Assembly: GCF_002953195.1 (NCBI RefSeq) | Contig: NZ_CP026377.1 | Coordinates: 2,666,001-2,730,000 of the forward strand | Length of the DNA stretch: 64,000 nucleotides | Origin: Mixta gaviniae | Lineage (GTDB): Bacteria > Pseudomonadota > Gammaproteobacteria > Enterobacterales > Enterobacteriaceae | Direction: 5' to 3' | In this document: positions 29,898 through 41,586 of the stretch, piece by piece | Layout of the letters: each line of letters opens with the position of its first letter | Numbering within the stretch: position 1 is the stretch's first letter | Position numbers and translations under genes: made by a program | The notes under the pieces: model-generated | Seen by the model: the letters and a program-made list of their open reading frames with translations, nothing else | What the model was told of the DNA's origin: nothing | The model's database searches: none

Positions 29898-31493
29898 TTA
29901 GCCCTGCGCCCAGACGCGCTGGCCGTTCACCTGCTGATTGCCGGATTGAGCGGTCTGCGCGGCATTCAGCGCCTGGCCGGCGCCCTGTTGCACGCCCTCC
30001 TTCACGCCCTCTTTCACGCCCTGCTTCAGCCCCTCTTTCAGCCCGGCAGTCAGCGCGGCACGTCCCGCCGTGGCCGCCAGGCCCGCTGCGCCAACGCCCG
30101 GGATCAGCACCGATAGCCCGGTGGCAACATAGCTGAGAATATCCAATAGCTTAAAGATGCCGCCGCCACGCGTTTTCTTCGCATCGGGCTGCGTCTCCTG
30201 ACCACTGGCCATCTCCTCCTGGGCGGCAACTTCATCCTGGGTGGTGGGCGCGTTGGCCAGCTGCGGCGTCGCGGCGACCTGATTAGAGCCTTTACGAATA
30301 AAGGCATCCAGATCGCCCTTGCCGATCTTGTGGTCGTTGGCTTTGTTGAAGAAGTTGCCGCCCGCGCCATGCTTGCCGTTGTCCAGCATCGAAAACAGCA
30401 TGGAGTTCGGCTGGCTTAACAGGTTGGCCGCGTCGCGCACCTCCTGGCTGTTATGGGGATCGTTGGCGATCTTCACCAGTTTATCCGGCTTAATGCCGCC
30501 GCCCTTGAAGAAGATATCCTGATTATTTTTGAGGGTCTCCACCGCTTTGCTCTCCTGCGGCGAGAGTTTGACATTATAGGCGGCCAGGTCGCACAGCCGG
30601 TCGCGCGAGACGCTCGCATTGGGATCATCCTTGCCGGTAAATTGCTGCCATTCCGTCGGGTGGTCGGTGAAATACTTCGCCGCCGCCGCCACCTGCGGCG
30701 GGCATTTCCCCATATCCTGCGAGCCGTCGGCGATTTTCTGCAGCGTCTCCATATTGACCTTTTTCGGCAGGCTCTCGGAGTAGAGATAGAGTTCGCGCAT
30801 GGCGTCGTTGCCGCTCATCTCGCGGGCGGGGGAACCCGGTTTGGCATCGGAAGGCACATATTCGTGGGTATAGGTTTCTGCTTTGGCGTCGGCATATTGA
30901 CGGATAGCCGGGTTCTCCTGCCATTTGCGAATATCCTTCGCGCTGATCTTACCGTCGCTTTTGCCATTGTTGGCCGGATCGATCGCCTCAAACATCGCGG
31001 GGTTGTTCAGCAGCGTATCCAGCGCCTTTTTGGCGTCGCCTGGGGTTTGCGGATCGTCGCGCAGCTTCATCAGCCCTTCGCGATCCTGCGGCTTTTTCAG
31101 CAGATCTTCATGGCGGCCCAGGGTGGTAATCGCCTGTTCGAACGACATCTGGTCGCCCTGCGCACCGTTGCCCCCTTCTGCCGCGCCGCTCTGCGGCCAT
31201 TGCGTCACGCCGGCGGACGAACCGCCAAGGCTGGAAAGCAGCTCGCCGAACAGCGAGGCGATCAGCTGGCTCAGCAACGGCGTCTCAGCAACATTTTGCG
31301 GCGGCAGGCCCGCGCCCTGCAGCGGCGTCGGCAGCTGGCCCACCACATTCTGCATCTGCGGCGCAATGAAAGAGAGCGTGCCGGACGCCACGCCCTTTGT
31401 GCCTCCCTGCGGCGGCGCGGCGGCGCCCTGGCCGGGCGTATCGGCATCGCGCGGCGCGGTAAAACTGGATGGTGAAAAGCCTGAAAGACGCAT
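29898..31493 (-). CDS. HrpK/HrpF/NolX-like type III translocator-family protein
   Basis: 531 residues. The pattern resembles the HrpF/NolX/PopF/HrpK family, whose members are secreted by type III systems and help effectors cross the host membrane. Layout: Pro/Gly-rich, signal-peptide-free N-terminus (1-115); three diverged repeats (about 117-191, 230-306, 311-400), two with EF-hand-like acidic loops (DPANNGKSDGKIS, NKANDHKIGKGDLD); a disordered acidic linker; one hydrophobic segment (about 448-484, glycine/alanine-rich); and a C-terminal run of four-residue KEGV/KQGV repeats (485-506). AGGGAGA lies 6 bases before the ATG. A hrp-box-like promoter is upstream, yet no type III genes are in the window. 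Family call by memory, moderately sure. Confidence 0.7.
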   Translation of the reverse strand: MRLSGFSPSSFTAPRDADTPGQGAAAPPQGGTKGVASGTLSFIAPQMQNVVGQLPTPLQGAGLPPQNVAETPLLSQLIASLFGELLSSLGGSSAGVTQWPQSGAAEGGNGAQGDQMSFEQAITTLGRHEDLLKKPQDREGLMKLRDDPQTPGDAKKALDTLLNNPAMFEAIDPANNGKSDGKISAKDIRKWQENPAIRQYADAKAETYTHEYVPSDAKPGSPAREMSGNDAMRELYLYSESLPKKVNMETLQKIADGSQDMGKCPPQVAAAAKYFTDHPTEWQQFTGKDDPNASVSRDRLCDLAAYNVKLSPQESKAVETLKNNQDIFFKGGGIKPDKLVKIANDPHNSQEVRDAANLLSQPNSMLFSMLDNGKHGAGGNFFNKANDHKIGKGDLDAFIRKGSNQVAATPQLANAPTTQDEVAAQEEMASGQETQPDAKKTRGGGIFKLLDILSYVATGLSVLIPGVGAAGLAATAGRAALTAGLKEGLKQGVKEGVKEGVQQGAGQALNAAQTAQSGNQQVNGQRVWAQG

Positions 31494-31580: not shown

Positions 31581-32060
31581 TTAGCCAGCTTCAGACATCT
31601 TCTTAATCGGCAACGTTACCAGCGGTTTGATCTCTTTCAGCACGAACATGCTCTGCATCTCCTTGATGCCGGGAAGACGGCGCACCACCGACATGGCGAA
31701 ATCGGCGTAGGAATCCAGGTCAGAGGCGACCACCTGCAGCAGGAAATCCGCATCGCCGCCGATGCTGTAACAGGCGACCACATCTTCCAGCGCCGTCACC
31801 TCCTCTTCAAACTTCTTCGCTTCCGCTTCGCTGTGGCTGTCGATCGCCACGCGCACAAACACCATGACCCCCAGGCCGATTTTCTTACGGTTCAGCACCG
31901 CACGGTACCCCTGGATCACCTCGTCCTCTTCCAGCTTGCGCACCTTGCGCCAGCACGGCGAGGCGGACATGCCGATCTTCTCTGCCAGCACCTGATTGGT
32001 CACGCGGGCGTCATCCTGAAGCAGCTTGAGGATTTTCATCTCTGTCGGGGTAAGCGCCAT
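31581..32060 (-). CDS. Lrp/AsnC-family regulator
   Basis: 159 residues from the ATG at 32060 (MALTPTEMKILKLLQDD); upstream in-frame codons lack a ribosome site. N-terminal helix-turn-helix (RVTNQVLAEKIGMSASPCWRKVRKLEEDEVIQGY) and a C-terminal RAM amino-acid-binding domain. It is divergent from the 32223-38300 cluster with 162 bp between, so it probably controls that cluster in response to an amino acid or related compound. Confidence 0.92.
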   Translation of the reverse strand: MALTPTEMKILKLLQDDARVTNQVLAEKIGMSASPCWRKVRKLEEDEVIQGYRAVLNRKKIGLGVMVFVRVAIDSHSEAEAKKFEEEVTALEDVVACYSIGGDADFLLQVVASDLDSYADFAMSVVRRLPGIKEMQSMFVLKEIKPLVTLPIKKMSEAG

Positions 32061-32222
32061 AAAAGTAAATTCCTTTCTTTTTAACCGCGATAGAGGGTGA
32101 TTTTTTCCTGTCGCGCCGCAAGAAGCAAGCAATATAGGTAACAATTTCCCGCCAGGCTACGGCATAATACATTCGCAACTTTAATGATTAATTGAAGTGA
32201 AAGCCGAAAGGAACCGACTTCT

Positions 32223-32579
32223 ATGTTGATGCATATCGTCCTGTTTACGTTCAAAACCCCATGGAGCTGGGCTTCTATCGAAGCAATCGATGCGGAACGT
32301 TCGACGCGCGCGCACCCTAATTACATTGATGAAATTAAAGGATGGACCTGCGGGCGTAACATTACCCGCCGCGATATCGCCGCCGACTTCGTGGTGATCG
32401 GCCTGTTTGAGGGCCGCACGGCGCTGGAAAACTATATCGTGCACCCTAATCATCAGGATGGCGTGGCGAAATGGAAAGCGATCGCCGACTGGCACGTGGT
32501 GGATATCGAACTCTCCAGCGACTTTACGCAAAACGCCGGGCTCCTCTCCGTCTTTAACCAGCTGGCGGAAGCCAGCTGA
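32223..32579 (+). CDS. Dabb (stress-responsive A/B barrel) protein
   Basis: 118 residues beginning MHIVLFTFK, the usual Dabb start, with NITRRDIAADFVVIGLFE and the HPNHQDGVAKW segment typical of the family. Small dimeric ferredoxin-like fold. Most bacterial members have no assigned role, though some plant members act as cyclases. First gene of the putative biosynthetic cluster, 17 bp before the next gene. Role in the pathway unknown. Confidence 0.8.
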   Translation: MLMHIVLFTFKTPWSWASIEAIDAERSTRAHPNYIDEIKGWTCGRNITRRDIAADFVVIGLFEGRTALENYIVHPNHQDGVAKWKAIADWHVVDIELSSDFTQNAGLLSVFNQLAEAS

Positions 32580-32595
32580 CAACCGGGAAATCACT

Positions 32596-33018
32596 ATGAA
32601 ATTTGACGCCAGCCAGCATCGCTGCACGATTGTTATCGATAAAGATCTGCCTGCCGGCCTCGCCATAAATGCCGCAAGCGTCATCGGCATCAGCTTTGGC
32701 CGCACCGTTGAGAACCTGGTCGGCCCCGATATGCAGAGCGTAGATAACATTAACTATCCGGGCGTGATCTACGCACCGCTTCCGGTGTTGCTGGCGCCGG
32801 GCGAGATGATCCACGCGCTGCAGGAGACGGCGCAGAGCGATGAAGAGATCTATGTGATGCCCTTCAGCGCGCTGGCCCAGTCCTGTAAAACTTACGACGA
32901 ATATGGCGAACGCATCTCTTCGGTAGAGAGCAGCCGTATCGAACTGGTCGCCGTCGGGCTTATCGGCCCTAAAAAGAAAATTACTAAAATGACGGGTAAT
33001 TTGCCGCTCTATAAATAA
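32596..33018 (+). CDS. DUF2000 family protein
   Basis: 140 residues with the DUF2000 pattern: CTIVIDKDLPAGLAINAASVIGISFGR, LAQSCKTYDEYGERI and the C-terminal IGPKKKITKMTGNLPL. The fold is related to peptidyl-tRNA hydrolase 2, but the biochemical role is unknown. It is 16 bases after the Dabb gene with a ribosome site CGGGAAA, so clearly in the same operon. Confidence 0.82.
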   Translation: MKFDASQHRCTIVIDKDLPAGLAINAASVIGISFGRTVENLVGPDMQSVDNINYPGVIYAPLPVLLAPGEMIHALQETAQSDEEIYVMPFSALAQSCKTYDEYGERISSVESSRIELVAVGLIGPKKKITKMTGNLPLYK

Positions 33019-33044
33019 CTGTTCATCCCATACTGAACGCCATC

Positions 33045-33076
33045 AAATAAGCAGTTTTATAACAGGCTGCTTATTT
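33045..33076 (+). terminator. Hairpin between DUF2000 and adenylating-enzyme genes
   Basis: AAATAAGCAG/CTGCTTATTT, a perfect 10-bp stem with a 12-nt loop in a 110-bp gap. The tail is TTATTTAAG-like rather than a T run, so it may attenuate rather than stop transcription. Confidence 0.4.
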
Positions 33077-33128
33077 AAGCGTGCGCCGAAGCCGTTAACT
33101 TTTTATTTCTTTATTTAAGGAAAGGAAC

Positions 33129-34538
33129 ATGTACGCTATTTTTAAAGATGAGCTATATGAAAAGGCGAAAGAGGTTTACCGGCAACATTTACGCTTCGAG
33201 GCCGGCGAAACCGATAAAACCGCGCTGGCGGCGCATCAAAATAAACAGCTGCGCGAGGTGATAAAATATGTCACCACCCACTCGCCATTTTATCGCGAGC
33301 ATTTAAAAGGTTTAACGGCGACGGATATTGAAACCCTGACGACCGGGCATATTCATACGCTGCCTTTTACCACTAAAGAGGATCTGCGCAGCCACGGCGC
33401 CGCCTTAGCCGCCGCGCCGTTGCATAAAAGCTGGATCTATTATGAGACGACCGGCACCACCGGCAAACCCACGCCCTGCCCGCGCAACGAGATCGATTCA
33501 ATCCATAACAATACGCCGCTGATTATTCACTACCGTCAAATTTTCGAACAGCACGGCACCGATCATATTGTCGGCGTAATGGGGCCCAGTGAACTGCACT
33601 CCACCGGCGACACCTTCGAAGATGTGTTTCGTAGCCTGGGCTATGGCGTGGTGAAGATGTGGCCACGCTCGCCGGTAGTCGGCATTAAGCGGGTAATGGC
33701 GCTGATTGACGAGCTGAAGCTTACCGCGCTGGTCTGCACGCCGGCGGTAGCAATCTCCGTCGCGCGCGCCTTGCAAAGCGCCGGCCGCAATCCGGCCGAG
33801 ACCAGCGTCAGGCTGATCCTGACCGTCGGCGAGCTGACCACGCCCGCTCTGCTGCGCAACATCAGCGAAGCATGGGATGCGCAGGTCTACAGCTGTATGT
33901 ACGCCTCGCAGGAGTCCTCAATCCTCGCCGCCTGCGCCAGTGATGGCCATCTTTATACGCTGCCGTTGAATAACTACTACGAAATTATCGATCCGGTCAG
34001 CGGTAAAAACTTCGCGGCAGACCAGGGGCAGACCACCGGCGAGTTGGTGATTACCCACCTCTATCAGGGCCAGAAGCCGCTGATTCGTTACCGCACCGGC
34101 GATATGGTGCGCGCCTGCGCCATGCCGGACGGTAGCCAGAAAATTACGCCGATTGGGCGCGTGCGCGACGTGCTGATGCTGAACGGCGCCGCCTGTTGCG
34201 CATGGGATTTAGAAGCGGCGCTGCTGGAGCGTCTCAACGGCTGCCTGGATTATGCGATTCAGATCGATAAGGCGCAGGGGCGCGATGTGCTGAATATTAC
34301 CGTTGAGATGTTTGATAAGACGCAGGAGGTCGGCACGCGTCTGCAGGCGGCGAAGCTGCATATGGAAACGGTGCTGAGCGGCGTGACGGTCAACCTGACG
34401 GCGGGCGAAACGGCGGCGGTCACCGGCACCTCGGCGATGGTGAGCTGGAAGGCGGCGCGCCTGCACGATCTGCGTCCGGCGGCCGACAACAGCGATCGCG
34501 AAGCGGCGCTGGCGCTGATCAACCGGGGATTCCAGTAA
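33129..34538 (+). CDS. PaaK-like adenylate-forming enzyme
   Basis: 469 residues of the phenylacetate-CoA ligase-like branch of adenylate-forming enzymes. The phosphate loop is YYETTGTTGKPT (about 104-115), a second core motif is PLIRYRTGDMV, and the hinge is GRVRDVLMLNGAACC, followed by a C-terminal ACT-like lobe. Such enzymes activate a carboxylate with ATP, then pass it to CoA, a carrier or an amine. No carrier protein is nearby, so free CoA or an amine is the likely acceptor. AAGGAAAGGAAC precedes the ATG. It overlaps the next gene by one base (TAATG). Substrate unknown. Confidence 0.85.
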   Translation: MYAIFKDELYEKAKEVYRQHLRFEAGETDKTALAAHQNKQLREVIKYVTTHSPFYREHLKGLTATDIETLTTGHIHTLPFTTKEDLRSHGAALAAAPLHKSWIYYETTGTTGKPTPCPRNEIDSIHNNTPLIIHYRQIFEQHGTDHIVGVMGPSELHSTGDTFEDVFRSLGYGVVKMWPRSPVVGIKRVMALIDELKLTALVCTPAVAISVARALQSAGRNPAETSVRLILTVGELTTPALLRNISEAWDAQVYSCMYASQESSILAACASDGHLYTLPLNNYYEIIDPVSGKNFAADQGQTTGELVITHLYQGQKPLIRYRTGDMVRACAMPDGSQKITPIGRVRDVLMLNGAACCAWDLEAALLERLNGCLDYAIQIDKAQGRDVLNITVEMFDKTQEVGTRLQAAKLHMETVLSGVTVNLTAGETAAVTGTSAMVSWKAARLHDLRPAADNSDREAALALINRGFQ

Positions 34539-35506
34539 TGCGTGAAACCTCTTCTCAGGATCTGAATATGGCGCGTCCGGCGCATCACCGCTGGGTCTGG
34601 CTGAACGGCGAATATGTCCCGGCCAGCGAGGCGGCGCTGCCGATCACTACCCAGGCGTTTAATTACGGCACCGGCGTGTTTGAAGGCATTCGCGGCTACC
34701 GCCAGGCGGACAGCGAACGGGTCGCGGTATTCCGTCTCGACGATCACCTGCTGCGTCTGCGCCAGTCAGCCTCGCTGCTGGCCATTGACGATCTGCCGGA
34801 AGCCGCGGCGCTGGCAGAGATAACCCTGTCGCTGCTGCGGCGCAATGAGGCCGACGGCGACTGCTATATTCGCCCCGTCGCCTACAAGCGCCAGCTGCTG
34901 CCGGGCAGCGGCTTCGGCGTCAAGCTCTCCGGCGTCAGCAGCGGCCTGTCGATCAACTCGCTGAATATGGGCGCTTACGTTAAGCAGGAGGGCATCCGCT
35001 GCACCCTCTCCGGCTGGCGACGCGTGGCGGATAATGCCATACCCGCCCGGGCCAAGATCACCGGCAGTTATGTCAACTCCGCCCTGGCGATGGAGGCGGC
35101 GCAGCGCGGCGGCTATGACGATGCCATTATGCTCAACCATCTGGGCTACGTGGCCGAAGCGACTACCTCGAACGTTTTTATGGTGAAAAAAGGCCGGCTG
35201 ATTACGCCGCCCGTGACGGCGAACATTCTGGAAGGCATCACCCGCGATACGGTTATCACGCTGGCGCAGCACTATCTGGGCTTAACTGTCGAGCAGCGCG
35301 ATATTCTGCCTTCGGAGCTGCTGACCGCCGATGAATGTTTCCTGTCGGGCACCGGCGTGGAAATTACCCCGGTAACACAGCTGGATCACTGTCGGCTGCG
35401 CAGTAGCGGGACGGAAAGCGTGACGATGGCGATCAGGGAATATTATGCACAGGCGGTAAGAGGAAAATTAAACGCCTTTATGCACTGGTTAACGCCTGTC
35501 TGTTAA
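34538..35506 (+). CDS. Class IV aminotransferase (IlvE-like)
   Basis: 322 residues, fold type IV PLP enzyme. WLNGEYVPASEAALPITTQAFNYGTGVFEGIR matches branched-chain aminotransferase N-termini, the PLP lysine is K173 in ARAKITGSYVNSALAMEAA, and the later EATTSNVFMV and LSGTGVEITPV motifs are present. In this cluster it most likely aminates a 2-oxo acid made by the BacA-like enzyme. The start overlaps the previous stop. An alternative ATG at 34568 with AGGA upstream would remove 10 residues. A branched-chain role cannot be excluded. Confidence 0.88.
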   Translation: MRETSSQDLNMARPAHHRWVWLNGEYVPASEAALPITTQAFNYGTGVFEGIRGYRQADSERVAVFRLDDHLLRLRQSASLLAIDDLPEAAALAEITLSLLRRNEADGDCYIRPVAYKRQLLPGSGFGVKLSGVSSGLSINSLNMGAYVKQEGIRCTLSGWRRVADNAIPARAKITGSYVNSALAMEAAQRGGYDDAIMLNHLGYVAEATTSNVFMVKKGRLITPPVTANILEGITRDTVITLAQHYLGLTVEQRDILPSELLTADECFLSGTGVEITPVTQLDHCRLRSSGTESVTMAIREYYAQAVRGKLNAFMHWLTPVC

Positions 35507-35528
35507 ATACAATATCTGGGTGAAAAAA

Positions 35529-36107
35529 ATGAATTATCATTTTATGGATATGGGTTTGGGCTGTGCCGTCAATTTTCCTGTGCATACGTTGGGTCCTGCC
35601 GGAACCAGTAGCGAATACGCCTCGCAATTTTTTCATCACTGGATGAACACGCATTATTCAGCAAGTCAGCATCCTATTTATCTGAATGATTCCTACGAGC
35701 TGGCGCGAAATAATGTTAAGGACGCTCAGGGATTATTAATTGTCGCTAACGCGTATCCGAAAATTAATGATTTTTATATGGATACGCGGCTAAAACTGCT
35801 GGCGACCTTTCTTTACGACACGCCGCTGTATGGCCTGGTGGCTAAAACCGATTTACCGGCGCGGCCGCTGTTTATCGCTTCTCATCCGGCACCCGTGCCG
35901 CTGATTGCCGAGCTGCTGCCGCCAGGCTTGCAGGTGGCGAAAGTGGTGGAGATGGCTTCCACCAGCGCCGCGGCGCAGGCTGTCGCCGAAGGCGAAGTCG
36001 ATATGGCGCTGACCACGGAGATCGCCGCCCGTCTGCACGGGCTGCATTTTATCTCCCGCACCCGTCCTATTCATATGCTCTGGTCGGTTTTCGCCTCCAA
36101 CGTTTAA
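35529..36107 (+). CDS. BacA-like prephenate decarboxylase homologue (prephenate dehydratase fold)
   Basis: 192 residues. Starts like prephenate dehydratases (HTLGPAGTSSEYAS) and has the STSAAAQAVAEGEVDMALT segment. The dehydratase TRF motif with its catalytic threonine is replaced by HMLWSVF, and there is no ACT regulatory domain. This is the pattern I remember for BacA of bacilysin biosynthesis and other non-aromatising prephenate decarboxylases, including the NDFYMDTRLKLL and DTPLYGLV segments. It would turn prephenate into a dihydro-4-hydroxyphenylpyruvate. The ATG at 35529 is preferred over a GTG 9 bases upstream. The first 300 bp are clearly more AT-rich than the neighbours. Fold sure, reaction inferred. 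Confidence 0.75.
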   Translation: MNYHFMDMGLGCAVNFPVHTLGPAGTSSEYASQFFHHWMNTHYSASQHPIYLNDSYELARNNVKDAQGLLIVANAYPKINDFYMDTRLKLLATFLYDTPLYGLVAKTDLPARPLFIASHPAPVPLIAELLPPGLQVAKVVEMASTSAAAQAVAEGEVDMALTTEIAARLHGLHFISRTRPIHMLWSVFASNV

Positions 36108-36125
36108 CCCCCGATAAGGAACCCT

Positions 36126-36671
36126 ATGACCCGTTTAAAAAAACATACCCTCGACAGCGCGCCGGCCGGTAGCCGCCCGCTGCTGCAAAGCTCGATTGAT
36201 GGTTTTGGCTGGATCCCCTGGCAGAGCGCCTATATGGCGGAATCGCCCGCGCTGCTTTCAGCCTATCAGTTTGCCCATGACGCCTTTGGCAGCTGCTCGC
36301 TCAATGAAGAGGAGCGCGCTGTGGTCTGGATCACCACCGGCGTCCTTAATCAGTGTGACTATACGGTGCAGGCGCACAGCTGGATCGCGGAACGCAAAGG
36401 GGTCGATGCCGCGGTGATTGAGGCGCTGGTCAGCCAGCCGGACACCCTGCCGCCCAGGCTGGCCGCGCTTTATCGCTTTACCCGCCAGGTAGTGCTGGCG
36501 CAGGGGCAGATCCCGTCGGAGGCAGTGAGTGCGCTGCTGGCCGCCGGTTACAGCCAGCAAAACATGCTGGATGTGATCCTCGGCGTGGCGCAGAAAACCA
36601 TGTCGACGCTGCTTAATAGCATTGCCCAAACGGACGTCGAGCCGCAGTTTCAGTCTGTCGCGACGCAATAA
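36126..36671 (+). CDS. AhpD/carboxymuconolactone decarboxylase-like protein with one active-site cysteine
   Basis: 181 residues, all-helical AhpD-like fold. The active-site segment reads LNQCDYTVQAHSW: C77 and H84 are kept, but the second cysteine of the usual CxxC is T80. A normal disulfide-based peroxidase cycle is therefore unlikely. AAGGAA precedes the ATG and the gene is 18 bp behind the BacA-like gene. It may have a non-redox role in the pathway. Confidence 0.75.
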   Translation: MTRLKKHTLDSAPAGSRPLLQSSIDGFGWIPWQSAYMAESPALLSAYQFAHDAFGSCSLNEEERAVVWITTGVLNQCDYTVQAHSWIAERKGVDAAVIEALVSQPDTLPPRLAALYRFTRQVVLAQGQIPSEAVSALLAAGYSQQNMLDVILGVAQKTMSTLLNSIAQTDVEPQFQSVATQ

Positions 36672-36680
36672 GGAGCCGCC

Positions 36681-37631
36681 ATGCAGATTATTGGTCGCGA
36701 GGCGGTGGAAAGCGCCCTTTCGCCCGCACTCTGCCTGCAGCTGAGCCGCGACGCCTTTACGCTGGTCAGCGCCGGTAAAGTCAGGCAGACGCTGCGCAGC
36801 GTCATTGCGGCGGATCAGGGTTGCCTGATGGGCACCATGCCCGCCTACATTGCCGAAGGCCCCTGGGCCGGTTTTGGTTTGAAAACGGTAAAGGTGGATT
36901 TCAGCCATCGCGATGGACGCAGCTCTCATGAAGGCTGCATCCTGCTGTATGACGCGACGGCGACGGGCGAGATGGCGCTGGTGGACGCCGCATCGGTCAC
37001 CGAGCTGCGCACGGCGGCGGCCTCGGCGCTGGCGACCGATCTGCTGGCGCCGCCCGACGCCCAACGGCTGGCGATCCTGGGCACCGGCGTACAGGCAAGG
37101 CAGCATGCGCTGATGATGATGGCGGTGCGGCCGTTTCGCCAGCTGTTCCTCTGGGGACGGCGTGAAGAGAGCGTCGCCGCGTTCGCCCGCTGGTGCCGCG
37201 AACGGCTGGATCTGGTGGTCACCGTGGCGCCGACGCCGGCGGCGGCGGTCAGCAACGCGGAGGTGATCTGCACCGTGACGGCGGCAAAGGCGGCGTTTCT
37301 GCATCGCCGTGACCTGCCGCCGCGTTGCCATATCAATGCGGTGGGCGCCTCGGCTCCCGGCTTTCAGGAGATCGCGCCGGAGGTCTATGCGGCGGTCGAA
37401 CTCTATGTCGACGCGCGTCAGGCGGTGTGGGATGCCTCAAGCTGTCTGCAACAGGCCAGAGATCAGGGCCTGCTGCCGCAGACGCAGCGCGGCATTGAAC
37501 TTGGCGAACGGCTGAGCGTCGGTGACGCGCCGAAGGCCGCCGCGCCGAGAACCCTCTTTAAATCGGTGGGGCTTGCCGCGCAGGATTTAGTTTTCGCCCG
37601 GGCGATTGTCGCCCGACAGCCGCTGCGCTAA
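36681..37631 (+). CDS. Ornithine cyclodeaminase/mu-crystallin family enzyme
   Basis: 316 residues. Rossmann NAD(P) motif AILGTGVQARQH (about 131-142), conserved K68 (GLKTV), R110 (ELRTAAASALA) and the INAVGASAPGFQEI segment. The family includes ornithine cyclodeaminase, ketimine reductases and alanine or opine-type dehydrogenases. In this setting a reductase or imine-forming step is plausible; a true proline-forming cyclodeaminase is possible. AAGGAG precedes the ATG, 9 bp after the previous stop. Confidence 0.85.
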   Translation: MQIIGREAVESALSPALCLQLSRDAFTLVSAGKVRQTLRSVIAADQGCLMGTMPAYIAEGPWAGFGLKTVKVDFSHRDGRSSHEGCILLYDATATGEMALVDAASVTELRTAAASALATDLLAPPDAQRLAILGTGVQARQHALMMMAVRPFRQLFLWGRREESVAAFARWCRERLDLVVTVAPTPAAAVSNAEVICTVTAAKAAFLHRRDLPPRCHINAVGASAPGFQEIAPEVYAAVELYVDARQAVWDASSCLQQARDQGLLPQTQRGIELGERLSVGDAPKAAAPRTLFKSVGLAAQDLVFARAIVARQPLR

Positions 37632-37673
37632 GCCTCATCTGCGCTTTTTTTCTCTTTCTGAACAGGAATAACC

Positions 37674-38300
37674 ATGCTGGGAACCGCTCAAATACTCTCT
37701 TATATCGCCGCGCTCGGACTGGCGGCCGCCATTCCCGGGCCGGGCATGACCGCCCTGGTTGCCCGCAGCGTCAGCGGCGGCGCGGTCACGGGCTTCACCA
37801 TGCTTACCGGCCTGATTCTGGGCGATCTGATCTATCTTTCCGTCGCGGTATTCGGCCTGGCGGTGATCGCCCATAACTACACCTCGCTGTTTACCCTGAT
37901 TAACTGGGCGGCCTCGTTCTATCTCTGCTGGCTCGCCTGGCAGTTCTGGCGCTACCAGCCGCAAGCGGTCGATATCGATCAGCGGGCGACGCGCAAGGAA
38001 CTCGCCTCCGCCTGGTTTTCCGGCCTGACCATTACGCTGGGCAATCCGAAGACCATCGCCTTCTATCTGGCGATCCTGCCGCTGGTGATCTCGCTGGATA
38101 ATGTCTCGCTGCAGATTTGGGGCATGATGCTGGTCCCGCTGACCATTTTCGTGCTGCTGGCGGTAGGCGCAGTATTTATCCTCGCGGCGCTCAAGATCCG
38201 CCACTTTTTGACCAGCGCCGAAGCACAGCGCCTGCTGTTCCGCTCGGCGGGCGTGATTATGCTGCTGGCCGCAATAGGCATGGTGGCGAAGACCTTATAG
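37674..38300 (+). CDS. LysE/RhtB-family amino acid exporter
   Basis: 208 residues with five to six transmembrane helices; AAIPGPGMTALVARSVSGG and the LGNPKTIAFYLAILP segment are diagnostic of the LysE family. Last gene of the cluster, 42 bp after the cyclodeaminase-like gene, followed by a terminator. It is a natural exporter for an amino-acid-like product, or for removing an excess intermediate. Confidence 0.88.
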   Translation: MLGTAQILSYIAALGLAAAIPGPGMTALVARSVSGGAVTGFTMLTGLILGDLIYLSVAVFGLAVIAHNYTSLFTLINWAASFYLCWLAWQFWRYQPQAVDIDQRATRKELASAWFSGLTITLGNPKTIAFYLAILPLVISLDNVSLQIWGMMLVPLTIFVLLAVGAVFILAALKIRHFLTSAEAQRLLFRSAGVIMLLAAIGMVAKTL

Positions 38301-40479: not shown

Positions 40480-41586
40480 TTATCCTTGCGGTTCGGAAGG
40501 CAGAACAGGCTCGCCAAGGGTCAGCATCAGGCGATTCGCCCAGGCGAAAAAGGCGGTCGACTGGATCAGATCCAGCAATGCCAGGGTATCCAGCCCGTGA
40601 GCGCGCAGCGCATCGAGCAGCGTCTGGCTGACGCTGACCGGCGTCAGGGAGAGCGCGGCGGCGAAATCGATCAGCGCCGCCCAGCGCGGCGACTGGCCGC
40701 GAGAGAGCGCTTCGCCCGGCGCGACATCCAGCAGTGCCTGCACCGCATCGGGCTGCTTCGCCAGCTGGGTTGCCTTGCGCGCATGCACCGAGGCGCAGTA
40801 GATGCAGCCGTTCACCTTGCTGACCACCGTCGCCGCCAGCTCGCGCCCGGCGCGCGGCAGGCCGCCGGCGGTATAGAAAATGCCTTTATCGGTCAGGGTG
40901 CGCTGCTCCAGCAGCGGCAGGTTGCGCGCCAGCAGCCGGAAATAGTCGGAATCGGTGTGGCCGAAACGCGCCAGCGTCGCCTGTTCGTCGGCGTCGAACG
41001 CTGCCAGCGGCTTTGCGGGCAGCCACGGCTCCCAGCTCAGCTCCCGCTGCGTAAAGGCGACCGGCGCCGCTTTGCCGCTGGCGGCGCGCGGCGCAGTGTG
41101 CCAGCGTCCGGCCAGCGCCGTGCGGCCGCTCTCCGGCAGGGTTTCGCCCTGCAGCAGACGCAGCCCTGCCAGCAGACGGCTCTGGAAGCTGATAAAGGCA
41201 ACCAGCTGCGCCAGCGTCACCACGCCGCGCTCGCTCCAGCCGGCGTCGCGCAGTACCTGAATATGCTGCGGCGCGGCGGCGGCGGGTTCAAAAGTGAGAC
41301 GCCGCGCGAACGCCAGCGCCTCGCTATGCCGTCGCGTATCGCTAAGCGGCGCGGCCTGCCGCGCGTAGTGCGCCTGCAGCCCCGCCGCGTCATGCCACGC
41401 CGCCGCCTGAGAGGCGATGGCAAAACGTTCGGCCAGCGGAAAATCCGCATCCTGCTGGCTGAACAGCAGCTCGTAGCTGCCCTGCGCATGTCGCGTCGCC
41501 GCATCGCGCGTGGCGCGCGCGGCGGCCAGCTCAGAATGCGGATCGATATCCGCCAGCGCGGCGAGCAGATCGGTGGTCTCAGTCAT
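40480..41586 (-). CDS. CMD-domain/alkylhydroperoxidase-like protein
   Basis: 368 residues with two AhpD-like halves. The C-terminal half has an intact active site, VNGCIYCASVHARKA (CxxC followed by H). The length and context match the fused Avi_7169/Avi_7170-type CMD proteins found with luciferase-like monooxygenases, as far as I remember. Likely peroxide or redox chemistry linked to the flavin enzyme encoded next to it. AGGAGAG precedes the ATG. Confidence 0.8.
   Translation of the reverse strand: MTETTDLLAALADIDPHSELAAARATRDAATRHAQGSYELLFSQQDADFPLAERFAIASQAAAWHDAAGLQAHYARQAAPLSDTRRHSEALAFARRLTFEPAAAAPQHIQVLRDAGWSERGVVTLAQLVAFISFQSRLLAGLRLLQGETLPESGRTALAGRWHTAPRAASGKAAPVAFTQRELSWEPWLPAKPLAAFDADEQATLARFGHTDSDYFRLLARNLPLLEQRTLTDKGIFYTAGGLPRAGRELAATVVSKVNGCIYCASVHARKATQLAKQPDAVQALLDVAPGEALSRGQSPRWAALIDFAAALSLTPVSVSQTLLDALRAHGLDTLALLDLIQSTAFFAWANRLMLTLGEPVLPSEPQG

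What the first reader, a model, noticed from the sequence alone, without database searches (positions are those of the whole stretch)
31581..38300. Possible undescribed pathway for a prephenate-derived amino acid
Seen: nine genes. An Lrp-type regulator is divergent from eight tightly spaced genes: Dabb, DUF2000, PaaK-like adenylating enzyme, class IV aminotransferase, BacA-like prephenate decarboxylase homologue, AhpD-like, ornithine cyclodeaminase-like and LysE exporter. Known: BacA-type enzymes divert prephenate to dihydro-hydroxyphenylpyruvate, which an aminotransferase turns into a dihydro-aromatic amino acid (bacilysin anticapsin route, dihydrophenylalanine in Photorhabdus). Inference: this cluster makes, modifies and exports such an amino acid or a simple amide of it, without an NRPS and without the ATP-grasp ligase of bacilysin. 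I know no described cluster with this gene set.
Basis: partly seen in the sequence, partly recalled or inferred. Interest (0 to 1): 0.88.

Follow-up and report, generated by a model that had tools for sequence, protein, structure and literature searches.

The report
Dihydrophenylalanine gene cluster outside Photorhabdus
This is an intact set of nine genes that most likely makes and exports dihydrophenylalanine, a known antibiotic look-alike of phenylalanine; the pathway is already partly described in the insect pathogen Photorhabdus, but most of its genes still lack a clear job.

Summary
In detail: an Lrp-type regulator divergent from eight co-directional genes, with a BacA-type (not dehydratase-type) enzyme. 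The gene set is a real unit: the eight operon genes recur in the same order in 10 of the 11 loci that I read with flanks and whose BacA-like protein is at least 45% identical (Pantoea, Acerihabitans, Photobacterium, Vibrio, Photorhabdus-type genomes, plasmids of Pantoea and Pseudomonas); 8 of these 10 also carry the divergent regulator. A DNA motif in the promoter region is conserved too. The distribution is rare and patchy. The pathway is not undescribed: Photorhabdus, with the same eight genes, makes dihydrophenylalanine by a non-aromatizing prephenate decarboxylase and a transaminase (Crawford 2011, seen only through a review). Erwinia amylovora, which I recall as another producer, has the BacA-like protein (72%). 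Best reading: a dihydrophenylalanine cluster, a new member of a known kind. The open part is chemistry: by stoichiometry the transamination product must still lose its ring hydroxyl reductively. The only NAD(P)-type reductase family in the operon is the ornithine-cyclodeaminase-like protein; the PaaK-like, CMD-like, Dabb and DUF2000 proteins have no role in the passages I read.

The parts
31581..32060 (-). Lrp/AsnC-family regulator, divergent from the operon
   Evidence: Pfam AsnC_trans_reg 3.7e-19; 106 bits against a cut-off of 233 for Lrp itself, so a separate paralogue; 74-94% identical in 8 other loci; no match in L027/L028
32132..32149 (+). Conserved promoter/operator-like motif ATATAGGTAACAAWTTYC in the divergent intergenic region
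   Evidence: In 8 aligned intergenic regions 6 have it exactly, L007 has a one-base variant and L034 lacks it; exact in 6 of the 39 loci held then: L006, L008, L009, L010, L033, L036; only exact copy in the genome; mean 0.01 in window shuffles at up to 3 mismatches
32223..32579 (+). Dabb-domain protein (A/B barrel)
   Evidence: Pfam Dabb 3e-15; aligned in 11 sequences including the Streptomyces plasmid locus, where it lies directly before BacA
32596..33018 (+). DUF2000 protein, peptidyl-tRNA-hydrolase-2-like fold
   Evidence: Pfam 1.7e-32; AlphaFold model pLDDT 86.4; Foldseek best 2gax (unknown function, 4.5e-9), then peptidyl-tRNA hydrolase 3erj (3.6e-4); also beside distant BacA-like genes in L011, L012, L029
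33129..34538 (+). PaaK-like adenylate-forming enzyme
   Evidence: Pfam AMP-binding 3.3e-9; NCBIfam CoA-ligase, PaaK and BagE/FevW models below cut-off; PDB neighbours PaaK 4r1l and AjiA1 6wuq; 48-74% identical in the 10 full-operon loci
34538..35506 (+). Class IV (branched-chain-type) aminotransferase
   Evidence: Pfam 5.6e-47; NCBIfam PRK06606 312 bits against cut-off 279
35529..36107 (+). BacA-type prephenate decarboxylase homologue, 192 aa, no ACT domain, no TRF motif
   Evidence: AlphaFold model pLDDT 93.2; Foldseek top hits are prephenate dehydratases
36126..36671 (+). CMD-fold protein (AhpD-like by sequence, but CxxT in place of CxxC)
   Evidence: Pfam CMD 2.9e-6; alignment A6 of 10 proteins
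36681..37631 (+). Ornithine cyclodeaminase/mu-crystallin family NAD(P)-dependent reductase
   Evidence: Pfam 3e-50; PDB neighbours thiomorpholine-carboxylate dehydrogenase 4bv8 and mu-crystallin 2i99; GxGxQA in 10 of 10 aligned proteins
37674..38300 (+). LysE-family amino acid exporter
   Evidence: Pfam LysE 2.9e-23; 62-85% identical in the 10 full-operon loci

Best explanation
The nine genes are a complete, patchily spread cluster for making and exporting L-2,5-dihydrophenylalanine (H2Phe, DHP), an antimetabolite of phenylalanine. Step 1 (inferred from family): the BacA-type enzyme decarboxylates prephenate without aromatizing it, giving dihydro-hydroxyphenylpyruvate. Step 2 (inferred from order and family): the adjacent class IV aminotransferase gives dihydrotyrosine. 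Step 3 (inferred, mechanism unknown): the ring hydroxyl is removed with a two-electron reduction, for which the ornithine-cyclodeaminase-like protein is the only NAD(P)-type reductase in the operon; the CMD-like, PaaK-like, Dabb and DUF2000 proteins would activate the hydroxyl, move the double bonds or protect the cell. Step 4 (inferred): LysE exports the amino acid. An Lrp-type protein, perhaps acting at the conserved site 32132-32149, controls the operon.
For: Same eight genes and order in L027 and L028; PaaK of L028 is 91% identical to a protein that its source names Photorhabdus akhurstii; the four genomes of that genus have one BacA-like match each at E <= 1e-10. [quoted passage not shown] A 2012 title ties dihydrophenylalanine synthesis to Erwinia amylovora and E. 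pyrifoliae strains (reference list); E. amylovora has the BacA-like protein P0028 (72%). BacA-like, not dehydratase: no TRF, PDT-like fold, no ACT domain. A LysE exporter suggests an amino acid product. Conservation of the whole set.
Against: No product, expression or enzyme activity is shown for this genome. The Photorhabdus paper was not held; its gene numbers plu3042-3044 are recalled. The Photorhabdus-type BacA-like protein is only 45-51% identical to the window's, its operon lacks the divergent Lrp gene and no exact copy of the motif was found there. Eight genes are more than decarboxylation, transamination and export need, so a further-modified product is possible. For E. amylovora only the BacA-like protein was seen by species name; the PaaK and CMD representatives were named Erwinia sp. 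Ejp617. Reductases outside the operon could do the reduction: on the two Pantoea plasmids SDR and alkene reductase genes lie beside the regulator.
Confidence: 0.75

Rival explanations
1. The cluster makes H2Phe only as an intermediate; the PaaK-like enzyme activates it (or a partner acid) and the true product is an ester, amide or otherwise modified dihydro-amino acid.
For: An adenylate-forming enzyme is present in all 10 full-operon loci, and its NCBIfam and PDB neighbours include BagE/FevW and AjiA1, which I recall as ligases joining acyl adenylates to small partners. More genes than H2Phe obviously needs.
Against: The exporter is LysE-type, a family recalled for free amino acids; Pfam shows no acyltransferase, carrier protein or ATP-grasp domain in the nine products; free H2Phe is the compound named for Photorhabdus.
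Confidence: 0.15
2. The cluster makes a hydroxylated dihydro- or tetrahydrotyrosine (anticapsin-like), as in bacilysin.
For: Shares BacA plus aminotransferase with bacilysin; a distant relative annotated as bacilysin protein BacA (P0115, 39%), and several close relatives carry the same label.
Against: No cupin, SDR or ATP-grasp domain among the nine products; Photorhabdus, whose type of genome has the same eight genes, is credited with dihydrophenylalanine.
Confidence: 0.06
3. The operon is a catabolic or housekeeping aromatic pathway, and the BacA-like protein is a drifted prephenate dehydratase.
For: Weak PDT Pfam score (5.3e-5) and PDT-like fold.
Against: TRF motif absent while the genome has a normal PheA at another place that keeps it; rare and patchy, partly plasmid-borne distribution; exporter in the operon.
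Confidence: 0.03

Closest known systems
Dihydrophenylalanine cluster of Photorhabdus (Crawford et al. 2011; gene numbers plu3042-3044 recalled)
   Same: All eight operon genes in the same order in Photorhabdus-type genomes, including aminotransferase-BacA-CMD adjacency; decarboxylase plus transaminase
   Different: 45-51% identity at BacA; no adjacent Lrp gene in L027/L028; no exact copy of the conserved motif there
Bacilysin cluster (bacABCDEFG) of Bacillus
   Same: BacA-type decarboxylase and an aminotransferase, an exporter
   Different: No cupin, SDR or ATP-grasp product here; LysE-type exporter (the bac gene list is recalled)
Other prephenate decarboxylase pathways: salinosporamide, aeruginosins, suomilides
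   Same: Prephenate diverted by a decarboxylase (PMC10157211 passages; the names SalX and AerD are recalled)
   Different: As I recall, those feed NRPS/PKS assembly lines; Pfam shows no such domain in the nine products here
Pantoea Natural Product 3 (eight-gene cluster)
   Same: Eight genes, found in Pantoea including P. vagans
   Different: PNP-3 is 8,487 bp, 49.06% GC and reported only from Pantoea; the operon here spans 6.1 kb and recurs in other genera. Not compared by sequence.

Membership tests
BacA-type non-aromatizing prephenate decarboxylase | Prephenate-dehydratase-like fold | tested here: met
   AlphaFold model pLDDT 93.2; best Foldseek hits prephenate dehydratases, E 2.1e-8
BacA-type non-aromatizing prephenate decarboxylase | Catalytic TRF threonine of dehydratases missing (role of the motif recalled) | tested here: met
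   Own PheA has NITRF; the window protein, P0028, L028 and P0115 lack it in the alignment shown
BacA-type non-aromatizing prephenate decarboxylase | No regulatory ACT domain (short protein) | tested here: met
   192 aa with no ACT hit; own PheA 386 aa
BacA-type non-aromatizing prephenate decarboxylase | Converts prephenate to dihydro-hydroxyphenylpyruvate | not testable with these tools
   Needs purified enzyme
Dihydrophenylalanine biosynthetic cluster | BacA-type gene beside an aminotransferase gene | tested here: met
   34538-35506 and 35529-36107; same in L027, L028
Dihydrophenylalanine biosynthetic cluster | Same gene set as the known producer Photorhabdus | tested here: met
   8 of 8 operon genes in order in L027 and L028; the genus is named through one 91% identical PaaK, not through a genome record
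Dihydrophenylalanine biosynthetic cluster | Cluster-dependent H2Phe in culture | not testable with these tools
   Needs metabolite comparison of wild type and deletion
Bacilysin cluster | BacB cupin, BacC/BacG SDR and BacD ATP-grasp genes present | tested here: not met
   Pfam scan of the nine products shows none at E <= 0.01
AhpD alkylhydroperoxidase (36126-36671) | CxxC redox pair (recalled) | tested here: not met
   C-x-x-T in 10 of 10 aligned proteins
Pantoea Natural Product 3 cluster | Sequence identity to MN807451.1 | not tested
   I did not look for the record; size, GC and range as printed differ

The most novel reading that the evidence does not exclude
The genes without an assigned role carry out an ATP-driven reductive deoxygenation that I know from no amino acid pathway: the PaaK-like ligase turns the allylic ring hydroxyl of dihydrotyrosine (or its keto acid) into an ester leaving group, the ornithine-cyclodeaminase-like reductase displaces it with hydride, and the CMD-like, Dabb and DUF2000 proteins steer double-bond position and prevent aromatization; the DUF2000 protein, with a peptidyl-tRNA-hydrolase-2-like fold, might instead protect the producer by clearing mischarged tRNA.
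Probability: 0.2. Interest if true: 0.65.

Novelty: new member of a known kind. Interest (0 to 1): 0.4.

Why it matters
Dihydrophenylalanine is known from an insect symbiont and, as I recall, from the fire blight bacterium. One conserved eight-gene operon, often with its own regulator and a conserved control site, in plant-, insect- and sea-associated bacteria and on plasmids makes two points testable: which genes make the compound outside Photorhabdus, and how the ring hydroxyl is removed without aromatization. It also suggests that the label 'bacilysin biosynthesis protein BacA' in enterobacteria usually does not mean bacilysin.

Tried and rejected
Rejected: a true prephenate dehydratase (no TRF); bacilysin (no cupin, SDR or ATP-grasp domain); identity with PNP-3 (passages of PMC11350110: other size, GC and range; not a sequence comparison). 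The other 11 Pantoea antibiotic clusters of that paper were not compared beyond the names, sizes and ranges in those passages. PNP-4 in PMC7744662 was read only by two passages and the abstract; the genes shown there differ.

Led nowhere: one search found no paper. In the rows shown (9 of 9; 38 of 39; 15 of 33; 15 of 39; 20 of 28; 20 of 98,224; 25 of 204; 4 of 4; 12 of 649) I saw no title or abstract start that describes this gene set; these are listings of an open-licence library, not proof of absence. PMC13123061 on E. amylovora virulence has no hit for DHP, dihydro or prephenate; PMC2827408 on the E. pyrifoliae genome has none for prephenate or dihydrophenyl; PMC2422844 and PMC4706420 gave nothing on this cluster. 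A 10-bp perfect inverted repeat in the 110-bp gap before PaaK is not found in the 10 other gaps examined. The promoter and terminator scan found no more than shuffles give. The BacA tree is weakly supported (3 of 21 inner branches starred, 12 open, Photorhabdus-type row on a long branch), so I draw no history from it. E. amylovora genome DNA was not reached: the single genome-contig scan with one sequence, which favours close relatives, gave 5 loci, none named Erwinia; the genus search that I could centre was that of Pantoea sp. A4.
Full report
OBSERVATION. Pfam agrees with the names; NCBIfam adds detail. The regulator starts at an ATG at 32060. The eight operon genes are co-directional with short or overlapping junctions, except 110 bp before the PaaK-like gene. 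GC is 58.4% against 59.8% for the window. The host is an unnamed single-contig 4.53-Mb genome.

BACA, NOT DEHYDRATASE. The 192-aa product gives only a weak PDT score (5.3e-5, below the curated cut-off). The genome has a 386-aa PheA elsewhere that keeps the NITRF motif; the window protein, E. amylovora P0028, the L028 protein and the Streptomyces protein annotated BacA (P0115) lack it. In the 23-row alignment A1 TLGPxGTSSE, TPxYG, HPxP, STSxAA and IxMxW are invariant. The AlphaFold model is confident (pLDDT 93.2) and its best PDB matches are prephenate dehydratases. That the TRF threonine is the catalytic residue of dehydratases is recalled.

CONSERVATION. A one-sequence scan of genome contigs, which favours close relatives, gave 5 loci, and 5 of 5 hold all nine genes in the same order and orientation: Pantoea sp. 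A4, Acerihabitans arboris, Photobacterium halotolerans, Vibrio ruber, Vibrio sp. MEBiC08052. In the plasmid collection 79 records had some match; I opened four of them. Pantoea vagans pPant1 (aminotransferase in two pieces), Pantoea jilinensis plas2 and Pseudomonas aeruginosa pNY8709-IMP hold all nine; the Streptomyces scopuliridis plasmid holds only Dabb and BacA of the nine, beside an annotated aminotransferase of another family and an EamA transporter. Two genomes of genus g235 hold the eight operon genes without the regulator (L027, L028). So of 11 loci with a BacA-like protein of at least 45% identity that were read with flanks (L006-L010, L027, L028, L033-L036; L026 repeats L007), 10 have the eight operon genes and 8 also the divergent regulator. 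Short stretches from the four g235 genomes show aminotransferase, BacA, CMD and OCD adjacent in 4 of 4. Of six loci with more distant BacA-like matches (28-38%), three keep only DUF2000 beside it (L011, L012, L029) and three show none of the other eight (L030-L032) at E <= 1e-3.

PROTEIN-LEVEL RANGE. The 47 best-scoring of 120 BacA-like hits (56-100% identity, the window's own among them) include proteins named Dickeya, Serratia, Chania, Chromobacterium, Enterobacter, Erwinia, Acerihabitans, Brenneria, Vibrio, Photobacterium and Thalassotalea. For 27 of these 47 the longest contig has the same length as one in the PaaK or CMD lists, for 16 of 47 in both (all 120 listed of 452 PaaK hits, 119 of them with a contig, and 58 of 64 CMD rows). 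This suggests the same contig, not adjacency. Of 21 hand-picked rows among the other 73, 5 share a length with the PaaK list and none with the CMD list.

RARITY. With the plasmid copies this looks like a patchy, mobile cluster (inference).

REGULATORY SITE. In the Lrp-Dabb gap the block ATATAGGTAACAAWTTYC is exact in 6 of 8 aligned regions, has one change in L007 and is lost in L034; L036 has it too. It is the only exact copy in the genome; three other places need 3 mismatches, and the reversed control pattern has 3 matches at that laxity, so those are noise. The regulator is more conserved than each of the eight operon genes in 8 of 8 loci that carry it (74-94%). That it binds there is inference.

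IDENTITY OF g235. The PaaK-like protein of L028 is 91% identical to P0210, which its source names Photorhabdus akhurstii. Each of the four g235 genomes has a single BacA-like match at E <= 1e-10. [quoted passage not shown] 2011). The paper itself is not held. From memory, its abstract names plu3042-3044 as required, Plu3043 as the decarboxylase and Plu3042 as the transaminase; the order aminotransferase-BacA-CMD found here fits. The conclusion that this operon is the dihydrophenylalanine cluster rests on that match.

ERWINIA. A reference title in PMC8310351 says that Erwinia amylovora and E. pyrifoliae strains were differentiated by synthesis of dihydrophenylalanine. Reports of the compound from E. 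amylovora (Feistner 1988; Schwartz 1991) are recalled. P0028 is named Erwinia amylovora and is 72% identical to the window protein; PaaK P0125 and CMD P0244 are named Erwinia sp. Ejp617. The other genes in E. amylovora itself were not seen by name.

MECHANISM. By formula, prephenate minus CO2, transaminated, is C9H13NO3 (dihydrotyrosine), while dihydrophenylalanine is C9H13NO2; so one oxygen must leave with two electrons added. Simple dehydration would give phenylalanine. The only NAD(P)-type oxidoreductase among the nine products is the OCD-like protein; its nearest solved relatives are thiomorpholine-carboxylate dehydrogenase, mu-crystallin and pyrroline-carboxylate reductase (ketimine reductases, as I recall), and GxGxQA is conserved in 10 of 10 aligned proteins. 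A reductase outside the operon is not excluded: on the two Pantoea plasmids SDR and alkene reductase genes lie beside the regulator. The PaaK-like enzyme has relatives that I recall as ester- or amide-forming. The CMD-like protein lacks the peroxidase CxxC; one CMD relative, P0296, carries a RidA-type domain. DUF2000 has a PTH2-like fold. Since of the nine only Dabb accompanies BacA on the Streptomyces plasmid, and only DUF2000 in three distant loci, both may act near the BacA product. These steps are hypotheses.

VERDICT. A real, conserved, probably functional cluster, most likely for dihydrophenylalanine. It is a new member of a known kind, not an undescribed pathway; the missing chemistry of most of its genes is the interesting part.

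Noticed in passing
29898-31493, minus strand: A 531-aa NolX-family protein (Pfam NolX, 2e-93), a type III translocon-like protein as I recall the family, next to the cluster; whether the genome has a matching secretion system was not looked at.
   Followed up: no
L034 (Pseudomonas aeruginosa plasmid pNY8709-IMP): The nine-gene cluster lies on a 335-kb plasmid from a blood isolate.
   Followed up: partly
L011:1098-4978 and L012:4870-8450: A different cassette in other families of the order: distant BacA, DUF2000 and an FGE-sulfatase-like protein in both, LysE exporter and AraC regulator by Pfam in L012 and by eye in L011, in L011 also a molybdopterin oxidoreductase. The L012 BacA match reads in two pieces. 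I know no described pathway for it.
   Followed up: partly
L035:8911-12519: A Streptomyces plasmid carries annotated aminotransferase, Dabb and BacA-like genes with an EamA transporter nearby, perhaps a shorter relative of the pathway.
   Followed up: no
P0296: A CMD relative with a RidA-type imine deaminase domain, which hints at an enamine or imine intermediate.
   Followed up: no
P0146: A PaaK-like protein of 72% identity is named Salmonella enterica by its source; misassignment or recent transfer, not checked.
   Followed up: no
L033:8046-8976: The aminotransferase of Pantoea vagans FBS135 reads in two pieces and no gene is listed there, so that copy may be silent.
   Followed up: partly
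L033:85-4624 and L036:87-4625: SDR and alkene reductase genes lie beside the regulator on two Pantoea plasmids; not looked for in the other loci.
   Followed up: no
40480-41586, minus strand: Another CMD-family protein (368 aa) lies downstream, near genes for an M20 peptidase and a luciferase-like monooxygenase.
   Followed up: no
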